The notes below the pieces were generated by a model, which worked only from the letters and a program-made list of their open reading frames with translations, searched no databases and was not told the DNA's origin. This document shows, one piece after another, positions 8,212 through 52,480 of a stretch of 64,000 nucleotides of DNA. The number at the start of each line of letters is the position of its first letter. The stretch's first letter is position 1. The DNA comes from Prinia subflava. Lineage: Eukaryota > Chordata > Aves > Passeriformes > Cisticolidae. The position numbers and the translations under genes were made by a program. The stretch covers positions 142,596,102-142,660,101 of the forward strand of contig NC_086247.1 in the NCBI RefSeq assembly GCF_021018805.1, given 5' to 3'.

Positions 8212-9083
8212 GTGGCAGACTGCCACCTCTGTAGTGGCACACAAGGTTCAAGTTTAGCACTGACAGTACTTCTGATCCGCTGTAACTAAACCAACAAATG
8301 TGACAAAAACATCAGGAGTGGGAAAGATTCATGTTGATATACAAAGAGAGGGAATGGCCAAAAGAATACCCAACATAGCTACAGTTCTTTGAGTTTTAAG
8401 AAGTTTTTCATAAGAATTTCTTCCCTAAAAGGAAGGCAGAAAGGCTCAGTTTCTTTATGCATAAGAAGGAAATATCAAAGAAATAGGAAGAGGTAATATC
8501 TTTTCTTAGGATTCTTTTAAGAAAGGAGGATGATGATTATATTTACAAAAGAGCTGTTTTCTGTGCCCATAAATTCAAAGGACAGGATGGAAGTTTTAGC
8601 ACTAGGGTCTGTGTTATTTTAATGGAATGCAAATTACTATTTTTAACATATGCACCTAATAATTCAGAGGCTGTTGTCTTTGATGAGGCCTTCAGGGCAA
8701 TTTCACAGGAAAGATGGAATATTTCTGTCACATAAGAGAACTTCATCTACACTTCATTCACTGAAAAATATAAAGATGAAAAACCATGCTTCAGTCAAAG
8801 AAGGGAAGATAAAAGATTTAGATAATGGAACTAAAGCTTGTGTGTTGGCAGAGAGATGAGATTCTTCATGAAAAGGATTTTAGTTAATTCCTCCAGGCAC
8901 ACACAGTTCATATTTCTGGCAAGACAGCCAGACATACTGGGTGCATGAGCAAATGAAAATACAACTGGTGTCTTACAGACACACAAACATGAGTACTTGT
9001 GATAATCAGAGTACACAAATATCTACTGCAACAGTGATAATTTTAGCACGTTTTTGCTAAATTCTGAGAGCAGTTCATGGAGG
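8212..9083. other. Unassigned sequence
   Basis: Nothing recognisable. It is AT-rich, with only short open frames on both strands. Confidence 0.4.
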
Positions 9084-9762
9084 ATTATCACAGAGCATTA
9101 TCATAGAGGACTGGGGGCTCTGGTGGTTGAGATGCTTGGCCTGATCTGGCAGTGTGCACCTGCAGTCCAGAAAGCCACATGTACCCTGGGCTGCATCCCA
9201 GCAGTGTGGCCAGCAGGTGAGGGAGGGGATTCTCCCCTCTGCTTGCCCTGGTGGGACCTCACCTGGAGCACTGTGTCCAGCTCTGGGGTCCTCAGCACAG
9301 GAAGGACCTGGTACTGTCTGAGTCCAGAGGTTACATGAGGATGACCAGAGGGAGGGAGGCCCTCTCCTATGAGGGAGGGGTGAGAGAATTTGGATTATTT
9401 TAGCCTGGAGAAGAGAAGCCTGTGGGGTGACCTTACTGCAGCCTTGCAGTACCTGAAGGGAGTCTACAAGAAGGCTGGGAAAGAACTTTTTGCAATGTGT
9501 AGTGACCACAGGGCATGGCCTTAAACAGAAAGACAGTAGGGTTAGATTAAATATAAAGAGGAAATTCTTTATTGTGGAGGTGGTGAGACACAGGAAGTAT
9601 TCCAGGCTGGGCTGGGTGGGGTTTGAGCAACCTGTTGTAGTGGAAGTTCTCCCTGCCTGTGGAAGGGGGTTGGAATCAGATGCTCTTAAAGGTCCCTTCC
9701 AACCAAAACCATTCTGTGATTTTATGACTGATTCTGTGACAGGTTCTATGAATCTGTGATAA
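9084..9762 (+). mobile_element. CR1 LINE 3' fragment
   Basis: The order of phrases is that of the 3' end of a chicken-repeat-1 LINE: GATCTGGCAGTGTGCACCTG, then GGCTGCATCCCAGCAGTGTG, then CACCTGGAGCACTGTGTCCA, then TTTAGCCTGGAGAAGAGAAG, then GGTCCCTTCCAACC with a tail of degenerate TTCTGTGATT units at 9712-9758. Reverse transcriptase is absent (5' truncated), as is usual for CR1. A short internal deletion lies near 9310-9340. Stops and indels show it is an inactive copy. Open frames of 144 and 94 codons overlapping it are not genes. Confidence 0.9.
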
Positions 9763-19650: not shown

Positions 19651-19820
19651 GTTCAAGGGCTACTGTTTTAATTGAAGATGAGCTAATACTTTGAGGCACT
19701 CATCTCTTCTTTATCCTCCCAGACTGTGGTTTGTGTTGAGGTATCAGCTCCACCACAGATATTCACAATTCTATGAGTAACTTAGTTTTACCTTCCCTAA
19801 AAGAAAGTCATGCTACTAAC
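19651..19820 (+). repeat. Diverged inverted repeat, arm 1
   Basis: This aligns by eye with the reverse complement of 22835-23015 over its whole length. The matches include GTTCAAGGGCTACTGTTT, TCTTCTTTATCCTCCCAGAC, CCACCACAGATATTCACAAT and CCCTAAAAGAAAGTCATG. Similarity is roughly 85-90 percent. Flanking sequence does not align, so the unit has defined edges. It could be two copies of an interspersed repeat I cannot name, or a local inverted duplication. Confidence 0.8.
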
Positions 19821-20295
19821 AAGCCCATAGTAACAAATGTGCTAAAAAGTTATACACTTGGTAAAATTGTGTGTCACTCATACTTCGATGCTTTATGACA
19901 GGAAATGCCATGAAGCTTGCTAAAGCAGCCCTGTTAATTTGATAGTTATGCACTGAACATCAACACATCATAAAATAATTTAGACTGGAAGGAGCTCAGG
20001 TCCCCACATTCCCCTGCCATTCAAAGGAGGTTGCTCAGGGTTTTATTCTTTTACTCAGGGAAAACTGTCAGGAGGAAGCACAGGCTGTTCCACAGCCTAA
20101 CCATCTTCATGTGGATGGGTTTTCTCCTTCACTTCCACATAGTTTCACTTGCAAAATTTTGGATTCCTTAGATGAATAAAATCACAAAATGTTTAAGGTT
20201 GAATCACACTGAAAATATTTATGTGTGCTTCAATAAAGAAAAATATATTGACCTGAATCAAACAATCAAACAATACACAACAGTATGTATATGAA

Positions 20296-22817: not shown

Positions 22818-22835
22818 CAAGGACTTAAGTCCTTG
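22818..22835. repeat. 18-bp perfect palindrome at edge of inverted repeat
   Basis: CAAGGACTTAAGTCCTTG is self-complementary. It ends exactly where similarity between the two inverted repeat arms begins. Confidence 0.75.
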
Positions 22836-23015
22836 TCACTATCATGACTTTCTTTTAGGGAAAAAGACCGGAAGGCAAAACTAAGTTACTCAGGGAATTG
22901 TGAATATCTGTGGTGGTACTGATACCTCAAAACAAACCACAGTCTGGGAGGATAAAGAAGAGGTGGGTGCCTCAAAGCATTAGTTCATTTTCAATTGAAA
23001 CAGTAGCCCTTGAAC
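22835..23015 (-). repeat. Diverged inverted repeat, arm 2
   Basis: Reverse-complement partner of 19651-19820, separated from it by about 3 kb. It carries an extra stretch of about 11 bases around 22860-22870 (AAAAAGACCGG) that arm 1 lacks. The two arms share both ends, which argues for a discrete repeat unit. Confidence 0.8.
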
Positions 23016-30409: not shown

Positions 30410-30835
30410 AATTTGATGAAGATCACAGGGCTAGAGCACTTCCCCTATGAAGACAGGCTCAGAAAATTGAGATGTTTCAACCTGGAGAAGACTCCAGAGT
30501 GGCCTTCTAGTGCTTATAGGGGGACTAAAGGAAAGATGGAGAGGGATTTTTTTAGTGACATGCAGTGATAGGACAAGGAGGGATGGCCTTAAATTGATAG
30601 GAGGTAGTTTTAAAATAGATCTTAGGAAGAAATTCTTTCCTGAGAGGGTGGTGAGGCACTGGCACAGGTTGCCCAGAGAAGTGGATGCCCCATCCCTGGC
30701 AGTGTTCAAGGCCAGGCTGGGTGAGGTTCTGAGCAACCTGGGATAGTGAAAGGTGTCCCTGGCTATGCAGAAGAGCTGGAAGTAGGGATGTTTAATGTCC
30801 CAAACCATTCTACAGTTTAATGATCTATCAATAAT
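30410..30835 (+). mobile_element. CR1 LINE 3' fragment
   Basis: Sense CR1 phrases are AGCACTTCCCCTATGAAGAC, TTTCAACCTGGAGAAGACTC, ACAAGGAGGGATGGCCTTAA, GAGGCACTGGCACAGGTTGC, GTTCAAGGCCAGGCTGGGTG and CCCAAACCATTCTACAG. Only the last 0.4 kb of the element is present, so it is 5' truncated. The overlapping 78- and 125-codon frames are repeat-derived. Confidence 0.92.
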
Positions 30836-32654: not shown

Positions 32655-32713
32655 ACTAGAAGTGCACTTCTAGTTTTTACACTTCTAGAAGTGCTTCTAG
32701 AAGTGTAAAAACT
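32655..32713. repeat. Nested palindrome cluster
   Basis: Two perfect inverted repeats sit side by side and share bases. The first is the 20-bp palindrome ACTAGAAGTGCACTTCTAGT (32655-32674). The second is a hairpin with 20-base arms, 32672-32691 and 32694-32713, separated by only two bases (TG). The arms use the same core, CTTCTAGAAG. The cluster ends 83 bp before the target duplication of the endogenous retrovirus. Confidence 0.9.
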
Positions 32714-32796: not shown

Positions 32797-32802
32797 TACT
32801 GT
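32797..32802. repeat. Target site duplication, left copy (TACTGT)
   Basis: Six bases, TACTGT, directly abut the left LTR and match 37144-37149 exactly. A 6-bp duplication is typical of alpha- and betaretrovirus-type integrases. Confidence 0.93.
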
Positions 32803-33227
32803 TATCGGGGTATCTCCCGATAACTCCGAGGGTCCAGCCAGCGGAGAAATGGCTTAATAAAATAGCGAGACGGCTTCCCAGGATATGCTTTGTAAAATAA
32901 AGTTTTAATAACAGGAAAAATAATAAACGTTACAAAATGAAAAGAGATAAGCCGAGCACCGTGTACCAAGCAAAGTTACACAGGCTAAGGCACTCCCAAA
33001 AAGCCTCGTGTACCCTTATGCAGGCCCTTTAGTACTCGATGGTCTAGGTGGGCTTTTTTGGCTCTTGGCCCAATGAGATGGACACTAGACTTTGAGGAGC
33101 ACTTCTAAAGTCCTATCACTGTGTCTGTGTTGGGACCGAGCCAATTACAGCGAGCAGGCTATAGAAAATTCTAGCTTCACTTCCTTATATGGAAACACCT
33201 GCTCGGGTACAGAAATGCACGACTACA
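32803..33227 (-). repeat. 3' LTR of the endogenous retrovirus
   Basis: 425 bp. In sense orientation it begins TGTAGTCGTGC and ends CCCCGATA, so it lacks the usual terminal CA. The ATTAAA at 32909-32904 in sense is a plausible polyadenylation signal. It is identical to the 5' LTR except at 32879. An open frame running rightward out of this LTR is not a gene. Confidence 0.93.
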
Positions 33228-33692
33228 TCTCACCCTGTAAAATCATATTAAAAAAAGAAAAAAAAAAGAGAAATAGTTACTTTGAAAAAATTCTCACTTT
33301 TGTTCATAATTGTGATTGTGTCAATAACTTATTGTTATTTAACAATTTGGTTTATAGTTAAGCTGTAGTTTTATGGATTACAAAATTTTAAATTTGGTAC
33401 TTTCTTTTTATTAGCCAATCTTTAAAATTTAATATTTAGTCTCAAATTACATATGAATCTTATTTTACTTTTTGTTTTGGGGAGATTTTTTCAAGTGAAC
33501 TATATTTTCTTTTTCTTTTGCATAAAGATTTGACAATAACTTTTAACATACAACAACGAACAATTTTGACATGACAACAATAACTTCAAAAATTTTAACA
33601 GTGCAACTTTTATAAAACTTAAGTCTCTGCTTCAAACGTATTTCAGTGTCTATAGTGCTGGGTTGTGTCAAAATGCAGAAGTCCTCTTGAAG

Positions 33693-33830
33693 CTACCATC
33701 CGGGGTCATCTAGTGTCTTTGGTGTGTTCTTCTCTCCTTTCTTCTTTTGTAGTTGTGACTCAACTTCTTTTGCAGGAACTTTCTTAGAGTCTGTGCCTGT
33801 GGAGACAAACAAAACCTCTCTCCCTGCCAT
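33693..33830 (-). other. Short basic open frame with overlapping acceptor-like site
   Basis: A 45-codon frame runs from ATG (33830-33828) to TAG (33695-33693). It is Lys-rich and ends in LDDPGW. Within its first codons a pyrimidine-rich stretch followed by CCACAG (AG at 33798-33797) looks like a splice acceptor. The downstream part also stays open after that point, so it could be the start of a 3' exon instead of a free-standing frame. I do not recognise the peptide. It may be a remnant of a former gene in the pol/env part of the ancestor. Confidence 0.25.
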
Positions 33831-34955
33831 AAAGGACAGGCTCTAAAATTTGTCTTGTTTTCAGAATTTTTATGAATATGAGAGATTAAAAAACATATAT
33901 ATAACTTTGTTCAACCTTTCTATAATAGAAAGCACTACGCCTTTTCCCATTTTTATCTTTTAAAGAGCATTTTTAGCTGTTTGTGTGCTTTTTAACAATA
34001 GATTGGCTTTTGAATGAATTAGTTATAATACGTGGTAGATTTGATATGTTGAAAAACTTCTGTAATTTTAAGAACTGTACATTTAGGAATGAGAAATGTT
34101 TACAAGAGATGTTTTAATTGTCTTTTTTGGTCTTTTTCTCCTTTATGTGTTGAGGTAGAACATACTTTAAAAAGTGTGTGGTTAGACAAGTGAATTTGTT
34201 TGAATTGTTTAAATGGTTGATATTGCATGATACAAGAGCTGATGTATTTTGATGTATGGTTAAAAGTTTGCTGTTACCTTGCTATTTGCTATAAAACTTA
34301 GGAGTTTAGTGTTTGCTTTAACATGTGACACAATACAGTTGCTGTTGAGAAAAAAGGAAAAAGATTAGTATTTTAATGTGAATTTTACAATTGATTAGAA
34401 CTTTTTCTTGAGAGGTCTCTGCTCCCTCTACCAAACTTGCAACATAAAAATTTGTAAACATAAAATATGAACTTTGAAAAACATGTAGACAGTTGTTCTT
34501 TTTTGGTTTTGAGATATAGTTTTTAGACTTTCTTAAAATCTTATTTTTATTTTTTGGTGTTAGGATTTTACTACATGGTTATGAGATTTTAGATTTTCTT
34601 GACTTATTTATAAAACGAATTGTTTTTAGAGGAGTATGAATTTTGAAAGGTTTTCAATTTAATTATAGAGATGAATTTAATAATTTTTTTTGTAATATTT
34701 ATACGGGCTATTTTTAAAAACTTTTGAATTTTGAATTAACTATTTCAATTAAAGATATGAGCAAGCAAAATATTTTTGCAGAATCTTTTCCTGTAAAGGA
34801 AAAATTATTTAGGAATTCGCTTTTATAATTAGTTTGGAATATAAATTTTTGGGCAAGTTATTACAATCTTCTTGCTTAATTGACAAAACAGAAAAGAAAA
34901 ACGTTTTGTTTTGGAATTACTTGGTAGTCTTTGTGAGATCTTAATGAAAAATTTA

Positions 34956-34961
34956 ACTTAC
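34956..34961 (-). promoter_or_regulatory. Candidate splice donor after the gag-like frame
   Basis: The sense strand reads CTTTGTAAGTTAAA, with a full GTAAGT donor consensus at 34961-34956, about 53 bases beyond the stop of the gag-like frame. Together with the acceptor at 33798-33797 it would remove about 1.16 kb of the A-rich region. Confidence 0.3.
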
Positions 34962-35013
34962 AAAGTTCTGGGTTTCTTGTTAAAACTGCAAAATAAAAGA
35001 ATAGGTCAGGGTT

Positions 35014-36336
35014 TTAAGGTATTTTGAGCTTGCTGCTTTGGTGGATTCTTGTGGTGGTTTTCATGACAGTCTTCTTTTGGACGAAGTCTACTTTGTCTCT
35101 TGGCTGCTGGAATTGAACTGTTAGCTGTCTCTGTTCTGTTTTCTTGGAGGGTTTTAGACGATGATAAACTTTCACTGCTTCAGTCTTGCTCTGTCCTTGC
35201 TTTTGTTTTGTTTTGGTCTCCTGTCGCCAGAGCCGGGCTGGCTCTGGGGTGCTGGTTTCTTTCTTTATCTTGTGCCAGGGATCTATGCTGGCTGATGAAT
35301 CCTCTGAATCATCAGAGAAACTGCAGGACGTGTGGGAAACTTTCTGATTTTTCATCGGAGTTTGTTTACATTTCTCCGGCATGGGCGCCGCCATCTTGGG
35401 GAGGGCAAGTTCCGGGATGTCACATCCGGTTCCCACGCTCCTCACAGCTAGGGCGTGTCTGTCCAGGCTGTGGGTGCCAACCCGGGGCGGTGCCCGAGGC
35501 TTGGGACTGCCTATGGAGGGGGAGCCTCCCGTGCTGGAGTGGGAGGAGCTGAGTGACACATCGGATGGGGCGTGCCGCAGCGTCGGGCTGTACTGAGCCC
35601 GCCCACATGGAGCTGAAGCTTCTGCCTCAGAGATGGGGAGGATTCCACGTTTTTCTTTGTTCTGTGAGCCCGCGCTTTCAGGGCTTTGTTCAAAACTCGC
35701 GCGCTCAAAATTAACGGACCGGGATCGCCCATATCTCGTACTGGGTGACTGAGGGGGTGGGGAGGGCGGTTGGAATGGAATCTTTGCCTGCTTGGCCAAG
35801 GCTGGCACAGGTCCCACTCCGGGGGTCTGAGGACGGCTCGGGGGAGGGCTCTGAGCCGCCCCGTGCCTTCTCCTCGGGAGTAAATCAAACCGGTTTTTTC
35901 TGGGACTTGGGGCATCAGAACTTGGATTTTTATCTTCATGTCTAAGGTGAGCAGGAGCCTTTTTGCATTTTACTTTCTGGGCTCCTTTTTTATGGTTGCT
36001 TTTAGAGGCTTTTCTCAAGGTTTCTCTTTCTGCAGTTTCAAGTGTTTTTTCACTGCTGAGCCTTTCGCCTTCTTCTGTTACAAAGTCTAACACAGTTTTA
36101 AAGATGGGTCTTAATTTTAACACAGATTTTTTCTTTGAATTATACAACTTCAATCCTATCTTGTCCCAAAATTCCACTGTTACTGTTTCAGCTGTATTAG
36201 TGTCCGGATACTTTTTATAGACCCATTTCACAAGTTTTTTAAGTTCTTTCCTCTCAAACTTATAGTCTTGAATAGTCAGTTTATAATTAAAATAACAAAA
36301 GGTGTCTCGCTGTTCTACGGATTGCCGGGTCCCCAT
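35014..36336 (-). CDS. gag: Gag-like matrix protein of the endogenous retrovirus
   Basis: An uninterrupted 440-codon frame. The frame can be extended two codons to a GTG at 36342, but the ATG at 36336-36334 is preferred. It has a strong context (GACAATGG) and gives N-terminal MGTRQS, a myristoylation signal with Gly2 and Ser6. Residues about 20-90 resemble a betaretroviral matrix: a basic helix (LKKLVKWVYKKYP, 32-44), an acid/Trp segment (VEFWDKIGLKLY, 54-65) and a further helix to about 88. A Lys-rich linker follows (110-126). Two proline-rich patches come next (164-178 and 187-198), then Ser/Pro-rich sequence to about 290. An acidic Ser cluster (341-350, SDDSEDSSAS) precedes a strongly basic C-terminus. 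No capsid major homology region, no CCHC zinc knuckle and no canonical PTAP or PPPY late motif is visible, so this is not a full Gag. The likely role is membrane targeting or packaging helped by another virus; that is inference. Confidence 0.8.
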   Translation of the reverse strand: MGTRQSVEQRDTFCYFNYKLTIQDYKFERKELKKLVKWVYKKYPDTNTAETVTVEFWDKIGLKLYNSKKKSVLKLRPIFKTVLDFVTEEGERLSSEKTLETAERETLRKASKSNHKKGAQKVKCKKAPAHLRHEDKNPSSDAPSPRKNRFDLLPRRRHGAAQSPPPSRPQTPGVGPVPALAKQAKIPFQPPSPPPQSPSTRYGRSRSVNFERASFEQSPESAGSQNKEKRGILPISEAEASAPCGRAQYSPTLRHAPSDVSLSSSHSSTGGSPSIGSPKPRAPPRVGTHSLDRHALAVRSVGTGCDIPELALPKMAAPMPEKCKQTPMKNQKVSHTSCSFSDDSEDSSASIDPWHKIKKETSTPEPARLWRQETKTKQKQGQSKTEAVKVYHRLKPSKKTEQRQLTVQFQQPRDKVDFVQKKTVMKTTTRIHQSSKLKIP

Positions 36337-36340
36337 TGTC

Positions 36341-36346
36341 ACTCAC
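36341..36346 (-). promoter_or_regulatory. Candidate splice donor just before the gag-like start
   Basis: The sense strand reads TCTGGTGAGTGACAATGG. The GTGAGT at 36346-36341 is a good donor consensus placed five bases before the start codon. That is where retroviruses often have the donor used for subgenomic RNA. Its natural partner would have been an env acceptor, which cannot be identified here apart from the site at 33798-33797. Confidence 0.35.
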
Positions 36347-36501
36347 CAGAATGGCTCTTGTGATCTCCCGGCTGCTCTTGGTTGTCTCCGACTCTCTCAG
36401 GTCACTCGGTGATTAGCTGTTCTGTCTCCAGCTCTGCTAGACTGTAGCTTCTCTCTTCTAAAGAGTAATCCACCTTGTACCAGAATCGGTGTCCGGCAAA
36501 G

Positions 36502-36525
36502 ACCCCCTCTCACCGGTATAGGGGT
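36502..36525 (-). promoter_or_regulatory. Candidate dimerisation hairpin in the leader
   Basis: In sense orientation a short stem (ACCCCT pairing with AGGGGGT) encloses a loop containing the self-complementary hexamer ACCGGT (36512-36517). A palindromic loop on a leader hairpin between the primer binding site and gag is the layout of retroviral kissing-loop dimerisation sites. The stem is short and no folding energy was calculated. Confidence 0.4.
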
Positions 36526-36528
36526 TCA

Positions 36529-36559
36529 GTCAAAAGGCTCCCTCTCAGCCTTTTTGACC
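36529..36559 (-). promoter_or_regulatory. Second leader hairpin, possible packaging element
   Basis: GTCAAAAGGCT pairs with AGCCTTTTTGAC across a seven-base loop, with one extra T in one arm. It lies directly beside the candidate dimerisation hairpin. The two together are a plausible encapsidation region, by position and structure only. Confidence 0.4.
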
Positions 36560-36696
36560 CAAAAATGTGGTTTTATTTTCACGACCAAAAAAACCACCAC
36601 GAGCTCGCTTTTAAAAAAACGAAACCAAGAGCAAAATGGCCTAGCTGAACGTGAGGGCTTTGTCAGCAAACTTCGATTAAGTTACCCTAATGTAGG

Positions 36697-36716
36697 GTCC
36701 CTGTTCGAAGGTGCCA
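36697..36716 (-). promoter_or_regulatory. Primer binding site, tRNA-Lys type
   Basis: Two bases inside the 5' LTR the sense strand reads TGGCACCTTCGAACAGGGAC. This matches the 3' end of tRNA-Lys(UUU) as used by betaretroviruses and lentiviruses, except for one G-to-A change and two additional bases in the middle. The position and the flanking TGG and CGAACAGGGAC blocks make the assignment secure. Whether the altered site still primes efficiently cannot be read from sequence. Confidence 0.8.
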
Positions 36717-36718
36717 TT

Positions 36719-37143
36719 TATCGGGGTATCTCCCGATAACTCCGAGGGTCCAGCCAGCGGAGAAATGGCTTAATAAAATAGCGAGACGGCTTCTCAGGAT
36801 ATGCTTTGTAAAATAAAGTTTTAATAACAGGAAAAATAATAAACGTTACAAAATGAAAAGAGATAAGCCGAGCACCGTGTACCAAGCAAAGTTACACAGG
36901 CTAAGGCACTCCCAAAAAGCCTCGTGTACCCTTATGCAGGCCCTTTAGTACTCGATGGTCTAGGTGGGCTTTTTTGGCTCTTGGCCCAATGAGATGGACA
37001 CTAGACTTTGAGGAGCACTTCTAAAGTCCTATCACTGTGTCTGTGTTGGGACCGAGCCAATTACAGCGAGCAGGCTATAGAAAATTCTAGCTTCACTTCC
37101 TTATATGGAAACACCTGCTCGGGTACAGAAATGCACGACTACA
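36719..37143 (-). repeat. 5' LTR of the endogenous retrovirus
   Basis: 425 bp, carrying the promoter for the element in minus orientation. It is one base different from the 3' LTR (T at 36795). Sense-strand CCAAT-type boxes occur in inverted form (ATTGGC and ATTGGG), but no TATA box at a convincing distance from a start site was identified. Confidence 0.93.
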
Positions 37144-37149
37144 TACTGT
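37144..37149. repeat. Target site duplication, right copy (TACTGT)
   Basis: Exact match to 32797-32802, directly adjoining the end of the right LTR. Confidence 0.93.
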
Positions 37150-51467: not shown

Positions 51468-52480
51468 AAATCATAGAATCATAGACTTGGTTTGGGGTAC
51501 AAGAGACATTAAAGTCCCGAGCCCCTGTCATGGGCAGGGACATCTTCCACTGGACCAGGATATTCAAAGCCCCCAACCAGCCTGGCCTTGAACACCTGCA
51601 AGGATGGAGCATCCACAGCTCCTTTGGGCAATGTTTCAGTGCCTTACCACCCCCACAGAAAAGAATTTCTTTCTAATGTCTAATCCAAACCTGCCCTCTT
51701 TCAATTTAAAGCCATGACATCCTTACCTACCACTACATGCCCTTGTTGAAAGTCCCTCTCTGGCTTTCCTGTAGGTTCCCTTTAAGTTCTTGGAGGTGCT
51801 ATAAGTTCTCCCCAGAGCCTTCTCTTCTCCAGGCTGAAAAGCCCCAACTCTCCCAACCTGTCTCTGTAGGAGAGTTGCTTCTGTCCTCTGGTCATCTTCA
51901 GGGCCTTCTCTCACTTCAACAGGTCCATCTCCATCTTATGCTGGGCACCCCAGAGCTGGATGGAGCTCTCCAGGTGGGGTCTCATGAGAACAGAATCCAG
52001 AGGCAGAATTACCTCACTCACCTTCTTCCCACGTTACTTTTGATGCAGCCCAGGACACAGCTGGTTTTCTGGCCCACAACTGCACACTGCTGGATCATTA
52101 CATGTTGAGATTCTTGTAGATCAAGACTCTGCAGTCTTTTCCAGAGCTGCTCTGAGTCCATTCTCAGTTCAGCCTGTATTTGTGCTTGTGGTTGCCCAGA
52201 CCCAGGTGCAGGACCTGGTACTTGGCCACGTTGAAGTTGACGAGGTCCACATGTGTCCACCTCTCCAGCCTGCCCAGGCCCCTGTGGATAGCATCCCATC
52301 CCTCCAGTGTGTGGAAAAACTGCTCACAAAAGCTTGGTGTCACTGGAAAACTTTCTGAGGGTGCCCTCACTCCCACTGTTCATGGCACTGACAAAGATGT
52401 CAAACCCCTGAGGAACATCACTTTCCACTGGACTCCACCAGTGACATCACTGACCTCCAGGAATACAATGGACATCAGCA
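51468..52480 (-). mobile_element. CR1 LINE 3' fragment, antisense
   Basis: Starts ATCATAGAATCATAGACTTG, the reverse complement of a CR1 tail. It continues CAGCCTGGCCTTGAACACCT, CTTCTCTTCTCCAGGCTGAA, CACCCCAGAGCTGGATGGAG, GATGCAGCCCAGGACACAGC and GCAGGACCTGGTACTTGGCC. The last phrases reach back into the region preceding the 3' end. At about 1 kb it is the longest CR1 copy here. Frames up to 123 codons are repeat-derived. Confidence 0.92.

What the first reader, a model, noticed from the sequence alone, without database searches (positions are those of the whole stretch)
32803..37143. Recent non-autonomous class II ERV with an intact frame but no pol or env
Seen: 425-bp LTRs differing at one base, a perfect 6-bp duplication, a PBS, and a single intact gag-like frame of 440 codons in only 4.3 kb. 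Known: 6-bp duplications and Lys PBS sites are typical of betaretrovirus-like ERVs. Inference: this is a parasite of another ERV, comparable in strategy to rodent non-autonomous elements, and may be a still-mobile avian family. A deleted copy would be expected to lose its frame unless the insertion is very young or the frame is maintained.
Basis: partly seen in the sequence, partly recalled or inferred. Interest (0 to 1): 0.8.

Follow-up and report, generated by a model that had tools for sequence, protein, structure and literature searches.

The report
Bird retrovirus relic carrying one gene
A recently inserted, stripped-down retrovirus-like element in a bird genome keeps one long intact gene and no copying genes, and a near-identical intact version of that gene is on record from a warbler-like songbird, so it looks more like a real freeloading element than a one-off broken virus.

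Summary
A 4,341-bp element (32803-37143, sense strand minus) has 425-bp LTRs differing at one base, a perfect 6-bp duplication TACTGT, a primer site nearest to tRNA-Lys3 if a 2-nt insertion is allowed, a structured leader, a splice-donor-like site before the ATG, one 440-codon frame, 1.8 kb of A-rich sequence without long frames, and no recognisable pol or env. Evidence against a one-off deletion: a protein search found a second 440-residue copy, annotated 'serine/arginine repetitive matrix protein 1-like' in Prinia subflava, 97% identical, same start and end. All 15 differences lie in residues 108-440. The 'gag' label is only partly supported: start MGTRQS (myristoylation-like), helical N-terminus, very basic tail (+35), but no family or structure search showed homology, and the capsid, nucleocapsid and late-domain patterns sought are absent. 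Best reading: a non-autonomous ERV with a retained helper-like protein, mobilised in trans, like mouse IAP-IDelta1 and chicken ENS-1 in strategy but with a different protein. Not shown: LTRs of the Prinia copy, copy number, an autonomous partner. The genome search did not complete (14 tries).

The parts
32797..32802 (+). target site duplication TACTGT, left copy
   Evidence: perfect match to the right copy
37144..37149 (+). target site duplication TACTGT, right copy
36719..37143 (-). 5' LTR (425 bp); TATAA at LTR base 39, ATTAAA at LTR base 319
32803..33227 (-). 3' LTR (425 bp), one mismatch to the 5' LTR
36719..36738 (-). U5 end of the LTR: inverted repeat TATCGGG...CCCGATA (also at 32803-32822)
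   Evidence: last 50 nt folded as DNA, z -2.97, 1 of 200 shuffles as stable
36697..36716 (-). primer binding site, nearest to tRNA-Lys3 with a 2-nt insertion and one mismatch, 2-nt spacer after the LTR
   Evidence: tRNA ends recalled
36337..36718 (-). structured leader (382 nt from LTR to ATG)
   Evidence: -125.7 kcal/mol, z -3.06, 0 of 100 shuffles as stable
36529..36558 (-). stem-loop in the leader (candidate packaging hairpin; role inferred)
   Evidence: RNA; 36500-36600 folded as DNA, z -4.23
36341..36349 (-). splice-donor-like CTG|GTGAGT just before the ATG
   Evidence: best donor score in the internal region, recalled weights
35014..36336 (-). 440-codon open frame (stop included), MGTRQS...KLKIP
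36016..36336 (-). codons 1-107: helical, matrix-like N-terminal part with myristoylation-like start; no difference from the Prinia copy
35017..36015 (-). codons 108-440: Pro/Ser-rich, net charge +35, no structure predicted; holds all 15 differences
33228..35013 (-). A-rich internal part (40.5% A, 31.8% T) without long frames; unusual joint strand skew
33228..33236 (-). AGGGTGAGA next to the 3' LTR, candidate polypurine tract, with a T-rich tract at 33250-33270 before it
   Evidence: role inferred

Best explanation
A recent insertion of a non-autonomous ERV-type LTR element that keeps one functional protein. Shown: paired near-identical LTRs, target duplication, PBS-like site, structured leader, splice-donor-like site, one open 440-codon frame, no recognisable pol or env, and a second intact copy of the same frame in a songbird protein record. 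Inferred: the LTR transcript is packaged and reverse-transcribed by Gag and Pol of an autonomous ERV supplied in trans. The protein, a membrane-targeted matrix-like head on a very basic, nucleic-acid-binding-like tail, would bind the element's own RNA and bring it to the assembling helper particle, a cis advantage like that reported for the IAP IDelta1 fusion protein. The primer-site insertion would lower silencing by tRNA fragments while still allowing priming.
For: Anatomy. Frame open beyond chance. Second full-length copy, same length and ends, 97%. No difference in residues 1-107, P 0.015-0.031 for that region in three neutral models. Myristoylation-like MGTRQS and net +40 charge. Precedents seen in passages: IDelta1 non-autonomous with an ORF acting in cis, ETn mobilised by MusD (PMC6466679); PBS mismatches and indels in active ETn, MusD, IAP (PMC7472051); ENS-1 as nonautonomous variant of ENS-3 (PMC10996621, section 9 read).
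Against: No host-genome copy count, no partner, no transcript. The unchanged stretch is modest evidence: a difference-free run of 107 or more anywhere arises in 21.7% of simulations. No codon-position base bias (52 of 174 control pieces as high for codons 108-440, 49 of 185 for 1-107). The protein database holds annotated proteins, so intact copies are what it can find: survivor bias. No homology to any Gag (fold searches not significant). The PBS match to Lys3 depends on the gap.
Confidence: 0.56

Rival explanations
1. One-off (or occasional) deletion derivative: the family is autonomous, the 440-codon frame is its normal first frame, and this copy lost pol and env by deletion or recombination; the frame is intact only because the insertion is young.
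For: One LTR difference means little time for decay (0.36-0.98 My at three assumed rates, upper 95% limits 2.0-5.5 My). The Prinia hit gives only the protein, not its surroundings.
Against: The frame ends in its own stop at the same place in both copies; it has none of the capsid or zinc-knuckle patterns sought; no relative sharing residues 1-125 was found among proteins of about 475-1510 aa (still longer ones were not candidates). The A-rich 1.8 kb shows no pol or env trace in the 10 of 25 sense pieces tested.
Confidence: 0.22
2. The frame is not a Gag at all: it is a new kind of ERV-encoded protein or an acquired cellular sequence carried between LTRs, in a non-autonomous element whose core genes were replaced.
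For: No significant match in Pfam or among solved structures by sequence; only a non-significant fold listing of the Mason-Pfizer monkey virus matrix protein (rank 12 of 46, E 4.3); an automatic-looking name calls the Prinia copy SRRM1-like.
Against: Position right after leader and donor-like site, start MG with a myristoylation-like motif, helical N-terminal prediction at low confidence are what a gag start looks like. A close cellular homologue of similar length would probably have appeared (inference).
Confidence: 0.16
3. The locus or its relatives serve the host (co-opted gene), as ENS-1/ERNI is reported to do in chicken.
For: A protein record exists in Prinia subflava; the N-terminal part is unchanged; ENS-1/ERNI and Bik-1 are precedents (PMC10996621).
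Against: This copy is a young insertion with both LTRs; nothing here shows expression or a shared genomic position.
Confidence: 0.06

Closest known systems
IAP IDelta1 (mouse ERV)
   Same: non-autonomous, partly deleted internal region, keeps one long frame that is reported to help retrotransposition in cis (PMC6466679, passages)
   Different: its frame is a gag-pol fusion of a known IAP; here the protein has no recognisable capsid, nucleocapsid or pol part, and no partner is known
ETn/MusD (mouse betaretrovirus-like pair)
   Same: LTR element lacking core genes; Lys tRNA primer; PBS variants with mismatches or indels common in active copies (PMC6466679, PMC7472051, passages)
   Different: ETn has no coding capacity; this element keeps a 440-codon frame
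ENS-1 / ERNI (nonautonomous variant of ENS-3/Soprano, Galliformes)
   Same: bird, recently active, LTR element with one protein of similar size (490 aa) (PMC10996621 section 9; PMC3958431 and PMC3362752 passages)
   Different: ERNI is described as coiled coil plus capsid fold and its family as sister to ERV-L; here a 6-bp duplication and a matrix-like head with basic tail. No ERNI sequence was compared
TR-GAG (plant LTR elements with only a Gag or Gag and protease domain)
   Same: LTRs plus at most a gag-like frame (PMC6022998, passages)
   Different: plant elements of other superfamilies (recalled); here no Gag domain is detected
Songbird ERVK LTR families (cordon-bleu, zebra finch, blackcap)
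   Same: recent ERVK activity in a warbler relative (PMC10542752, passages); LTR ends deviating from TG...CA and one family with both 5- and 6-bp duplications (PMC6523648, passages)
   Different: no description of this frame in the passages seen; their supplementary LTR sequences could not be compared

Membership tests
LTR element inserted by integrase | paired LTRs and target site duplication | tested here: met
class II (ERVK/betaretrovirus-like) ERV | 6-bp target duplication | tested here: met
   a 5-bp reading is possible by a one-base ambiguity but leaves only a 1-nt spacer to the PBS
class II (ERVK/betaretrovirus-like) ERV | tRNA-Lys primer binding site | tested here: inconclusive
   of 18 recalled tRNA ends Lys3 is best only with a 2-nt insertion and one mismatch
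class II (ERVK/betaretrovirus-like) ERV | RT/pol in the betaretrovirus clade | not testable with these tools
   the element has no recognisable pol and no partner was found
retroviral Gag protein | matrix domain homology at the N-terminus | tested here: inconclusive
   no retroviral hit in Pfam or PDB sequences; model of low confidence (pLDDT 62); fold searches not significant
retroviral Gag protein | capsid major homology region and nucleocapsid zinc knuckle | tested here: not met
   no match to the simple recalled patterns used; Pfam none
non-autonomous ERV family | no core enzymatic genes | tested here: met
   10 of 25 sense pieces scanned, longest piece 86 codons
non-autonomous ERV family | several copies with the same internal structure at different sites | tested here: inconclusive
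   second intact protein copy in Prinia subflava, its LTRs and flanks unseen; the genome search did not complete
ENS-1/Soprano | ERNI protein with capsid fold | not tested
   no ERNI sequence was compared

The most novel reading that the evidence does not exclude
A satellite-like avian retroelement that has swapped capsid, nucleocapsid and pol for a single dedicated hijacking protein: a myristoylated matrix-like head fused to a basic RNA-binding tail, kept by selection because it steers the element's own RNA into another virus's particles, with an altered primer site that dodges tRNA-fragment silencing.
Probability: 0.2. Interest if true: 0.78.

Novelty: new variant of a known kind. Interest (0 to 1): 0.5.

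Why it matters
The non-autonomous ERV precedents read here either code for nothing (ETn) or for recognisable Gag or Gag-Pol parts (IDelta1, ENS-1). A bird element that keeps an intact protein without the recognisable particle-forming parts would make it testable whether parasitic elements maintain their own protein to win packaging, and would add a young LTR family to the recent ERVK activity reported in songbirds (PMC10542752, passages; PMC11009239, passages and start of abstract).
Full report
What is there. The element spans 32803-37143 and reads on the minus strand. Its LTRs (36719-37143 upstream, 32803-33227 downstream) are 425 bp and differ at one position; TACTGT flanks both sides. At the junction one A is shared, so the duplication can be read as 6 bp with LTR ends TG...TA or 5 bp with ends TG...AA; neither is TG...CA. 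The 6-bp reading leaves two bases between LTR and PBS, the 5-bp reading one; 2-4 is usual (PMC7472051, passage). Deviating LTR ends, and one family with both 5- and 6-bp duplications, are reported in a songbird (PMC6523648, passages). The LTR ends in an inverted repeat TATCGGG...CCCGATA. No other copy of any part is in the window at blastn E 1e-3.

Replication signals. Two bases after the 5' LTR stands TGGCACCTTCGAACAGGGAC. Of 18 recalled tRNA ends the best gapped score is Lys3 (13.5, next Tyr 8.0), with a TT insertion and one mismatch; without a gap it matches 8 of 18 positions, and two others match 9. PMC7472051 (passages) states that the commonest PBS sequences of mouse ETn, MusD and IAP carry mismatches, that active elements tolerate 0, 2 or 3 mutations or indels, and suggests evasion of tRNA-fragment silencing; that is a lead for this site, not a test. 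The 382-nt leader folds better than all 100 shuffles (z -3.06), with a stem-loop at 36529-36558. The best splice-donor score of the internal region lies just before the ATG (eight sites elsewhere on this strand of the window score higher). Next to the 3' LTR stands AGGGTGAGA after a T-rich tract: a weak polypurine-tract candidate; its role is inferred. The same nine bases also score as a donor.

The frame. 440 codons from ATG 36336 to the stop ending at 35014. In 4,000 dinucleotide shuffles the stretch is open in no sense frame; codons 108-440 alone are open in 1 of 4,000. In 1,000 shuffles of the wider region the longest frame was 203. Against coding, base use by codon position is flat. The protein starts MGTRQS, which fits a myristoylation pattern (recalled), is K-rich in 1-107 and Pro/Ser-rich with net +35 in 108-440. 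None of the simple patterns for zinc knuckle, major homology region or late domains occurs. Pfam shows no family for the whole frame at E 1; for 1-113 four families at E 0.004-0.11, all below cut-off and none retroviral. PDB sequences give one hit at E 0.06 for the whole frame and six at E 1.6-1.8 for 1-113, none retroviral. AlphaFold2 on 1-113 without an alignment gives helices at pLDDT 62; Foldseek lists the Mason-Pfizer monkey virus matrix protein at rank 12 of 46 with E 4.3, which is not significant; the second look lists unrelated helical proteins. So 'matrix-like' is a lead by position, motif and helices, not a demonstrated homology.

The second copy. The protein search (5.8 billion sequences) returned one hit among 7,096 candidates: P0001, Prinia subflava, 440 residues, 97% identical over the full length. 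Both proteins start and end at the same residues. The 15 differences are each explicable by one base change and all lie in 108-440. Under three neutral models (two with CpG weighting) the chance of none in 1-107 is 0.015-0.031; but a clean run that long anywhere occurs in 21.7% of simulations, so this is a hint only. The hit shows that the frame recurs with the same end; it does not show LTRs, absence of pol, or that the Prinia copy is another species' element: the window's species is not given and might be Prinia itself. Prinia belongs to Cisticolidae, Sylvioidea. Relatives of 1-125 among proteins of about 475-1510 aa: none.

The rest. 33228-35013 is 72% A+T, with an A>T and C>G sense-strand skew reached jointly, in size, by 1.2% of 562 overlapping windows elsewhere in this sequence. 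That speaks, weakly, for long residence in a retroelement rather than for freshly captured host DNA. Ten of its 25 sense stop-to-stop pieces were scanned (one of the ten lies mostly in the DNA of the frame, in another frame); only weak non-retroviral hits. With 86 codons as the longest piece, no intact RT, integrase or envelope can be encoded.

Age. One difference in 425 bp gives 0.36-0.98 My for three assumed rates, with 95% limits from 0.01 to 5.5 My (rates recalled). The Prinia copy, 3% apart in protein, is the argument that youth is not the whole story.

How it works. Shown: anatomy, absence of core genes, recurrence of the frame. Inferred: mobilisation in trans by an ERV with compatible LTR ends, PBS use and packaging; a helper-like role in cis for the protein. 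In strategy it resembles IAP IDelta1, ETn/MusD and ENS-1. In membership it cannot be filed as class II beyond the duplication length, and it fails the capsid and nucleocapsid tests of a full Gag.

Verdict. A new variant of a known kind, of moderate interest, with a cheap decisive test.

Noticed in passing
32672-32713: A 42-bp near-perfect palindrome lies 83 bp to the left of the left target duplication; possible hairpin, origin unknown.
   Followed up: no
9142-9591, 30513-30767, 51529-52097: Diverged dispersed repeats (69-74% alike, inverted); the antisense frame at 9075-9509 reads like the 3' part of avian CR1 (recalled, no call; no Pfam hit).
   Followed up: partly
19651-19823 and 22832-23015: Inverted pair of about 180 bp, 86% identical, about 3 kb apart.
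   Followed up: no
32803-32822 and 36719-36738: The U5 end of the LTR is an inverted repeat TATCGGG...CCCGATA and the LTR does not end in CA.
   Followed up: partly
33228-33236: The candidate polypurine tract AGGGTGAGA also scores as a splice donor, and the T-rich tract plus ACAG just before it looks by eye like a splice acceptor, though it is not among the ten best acceptor scores.
   Followed up: partly
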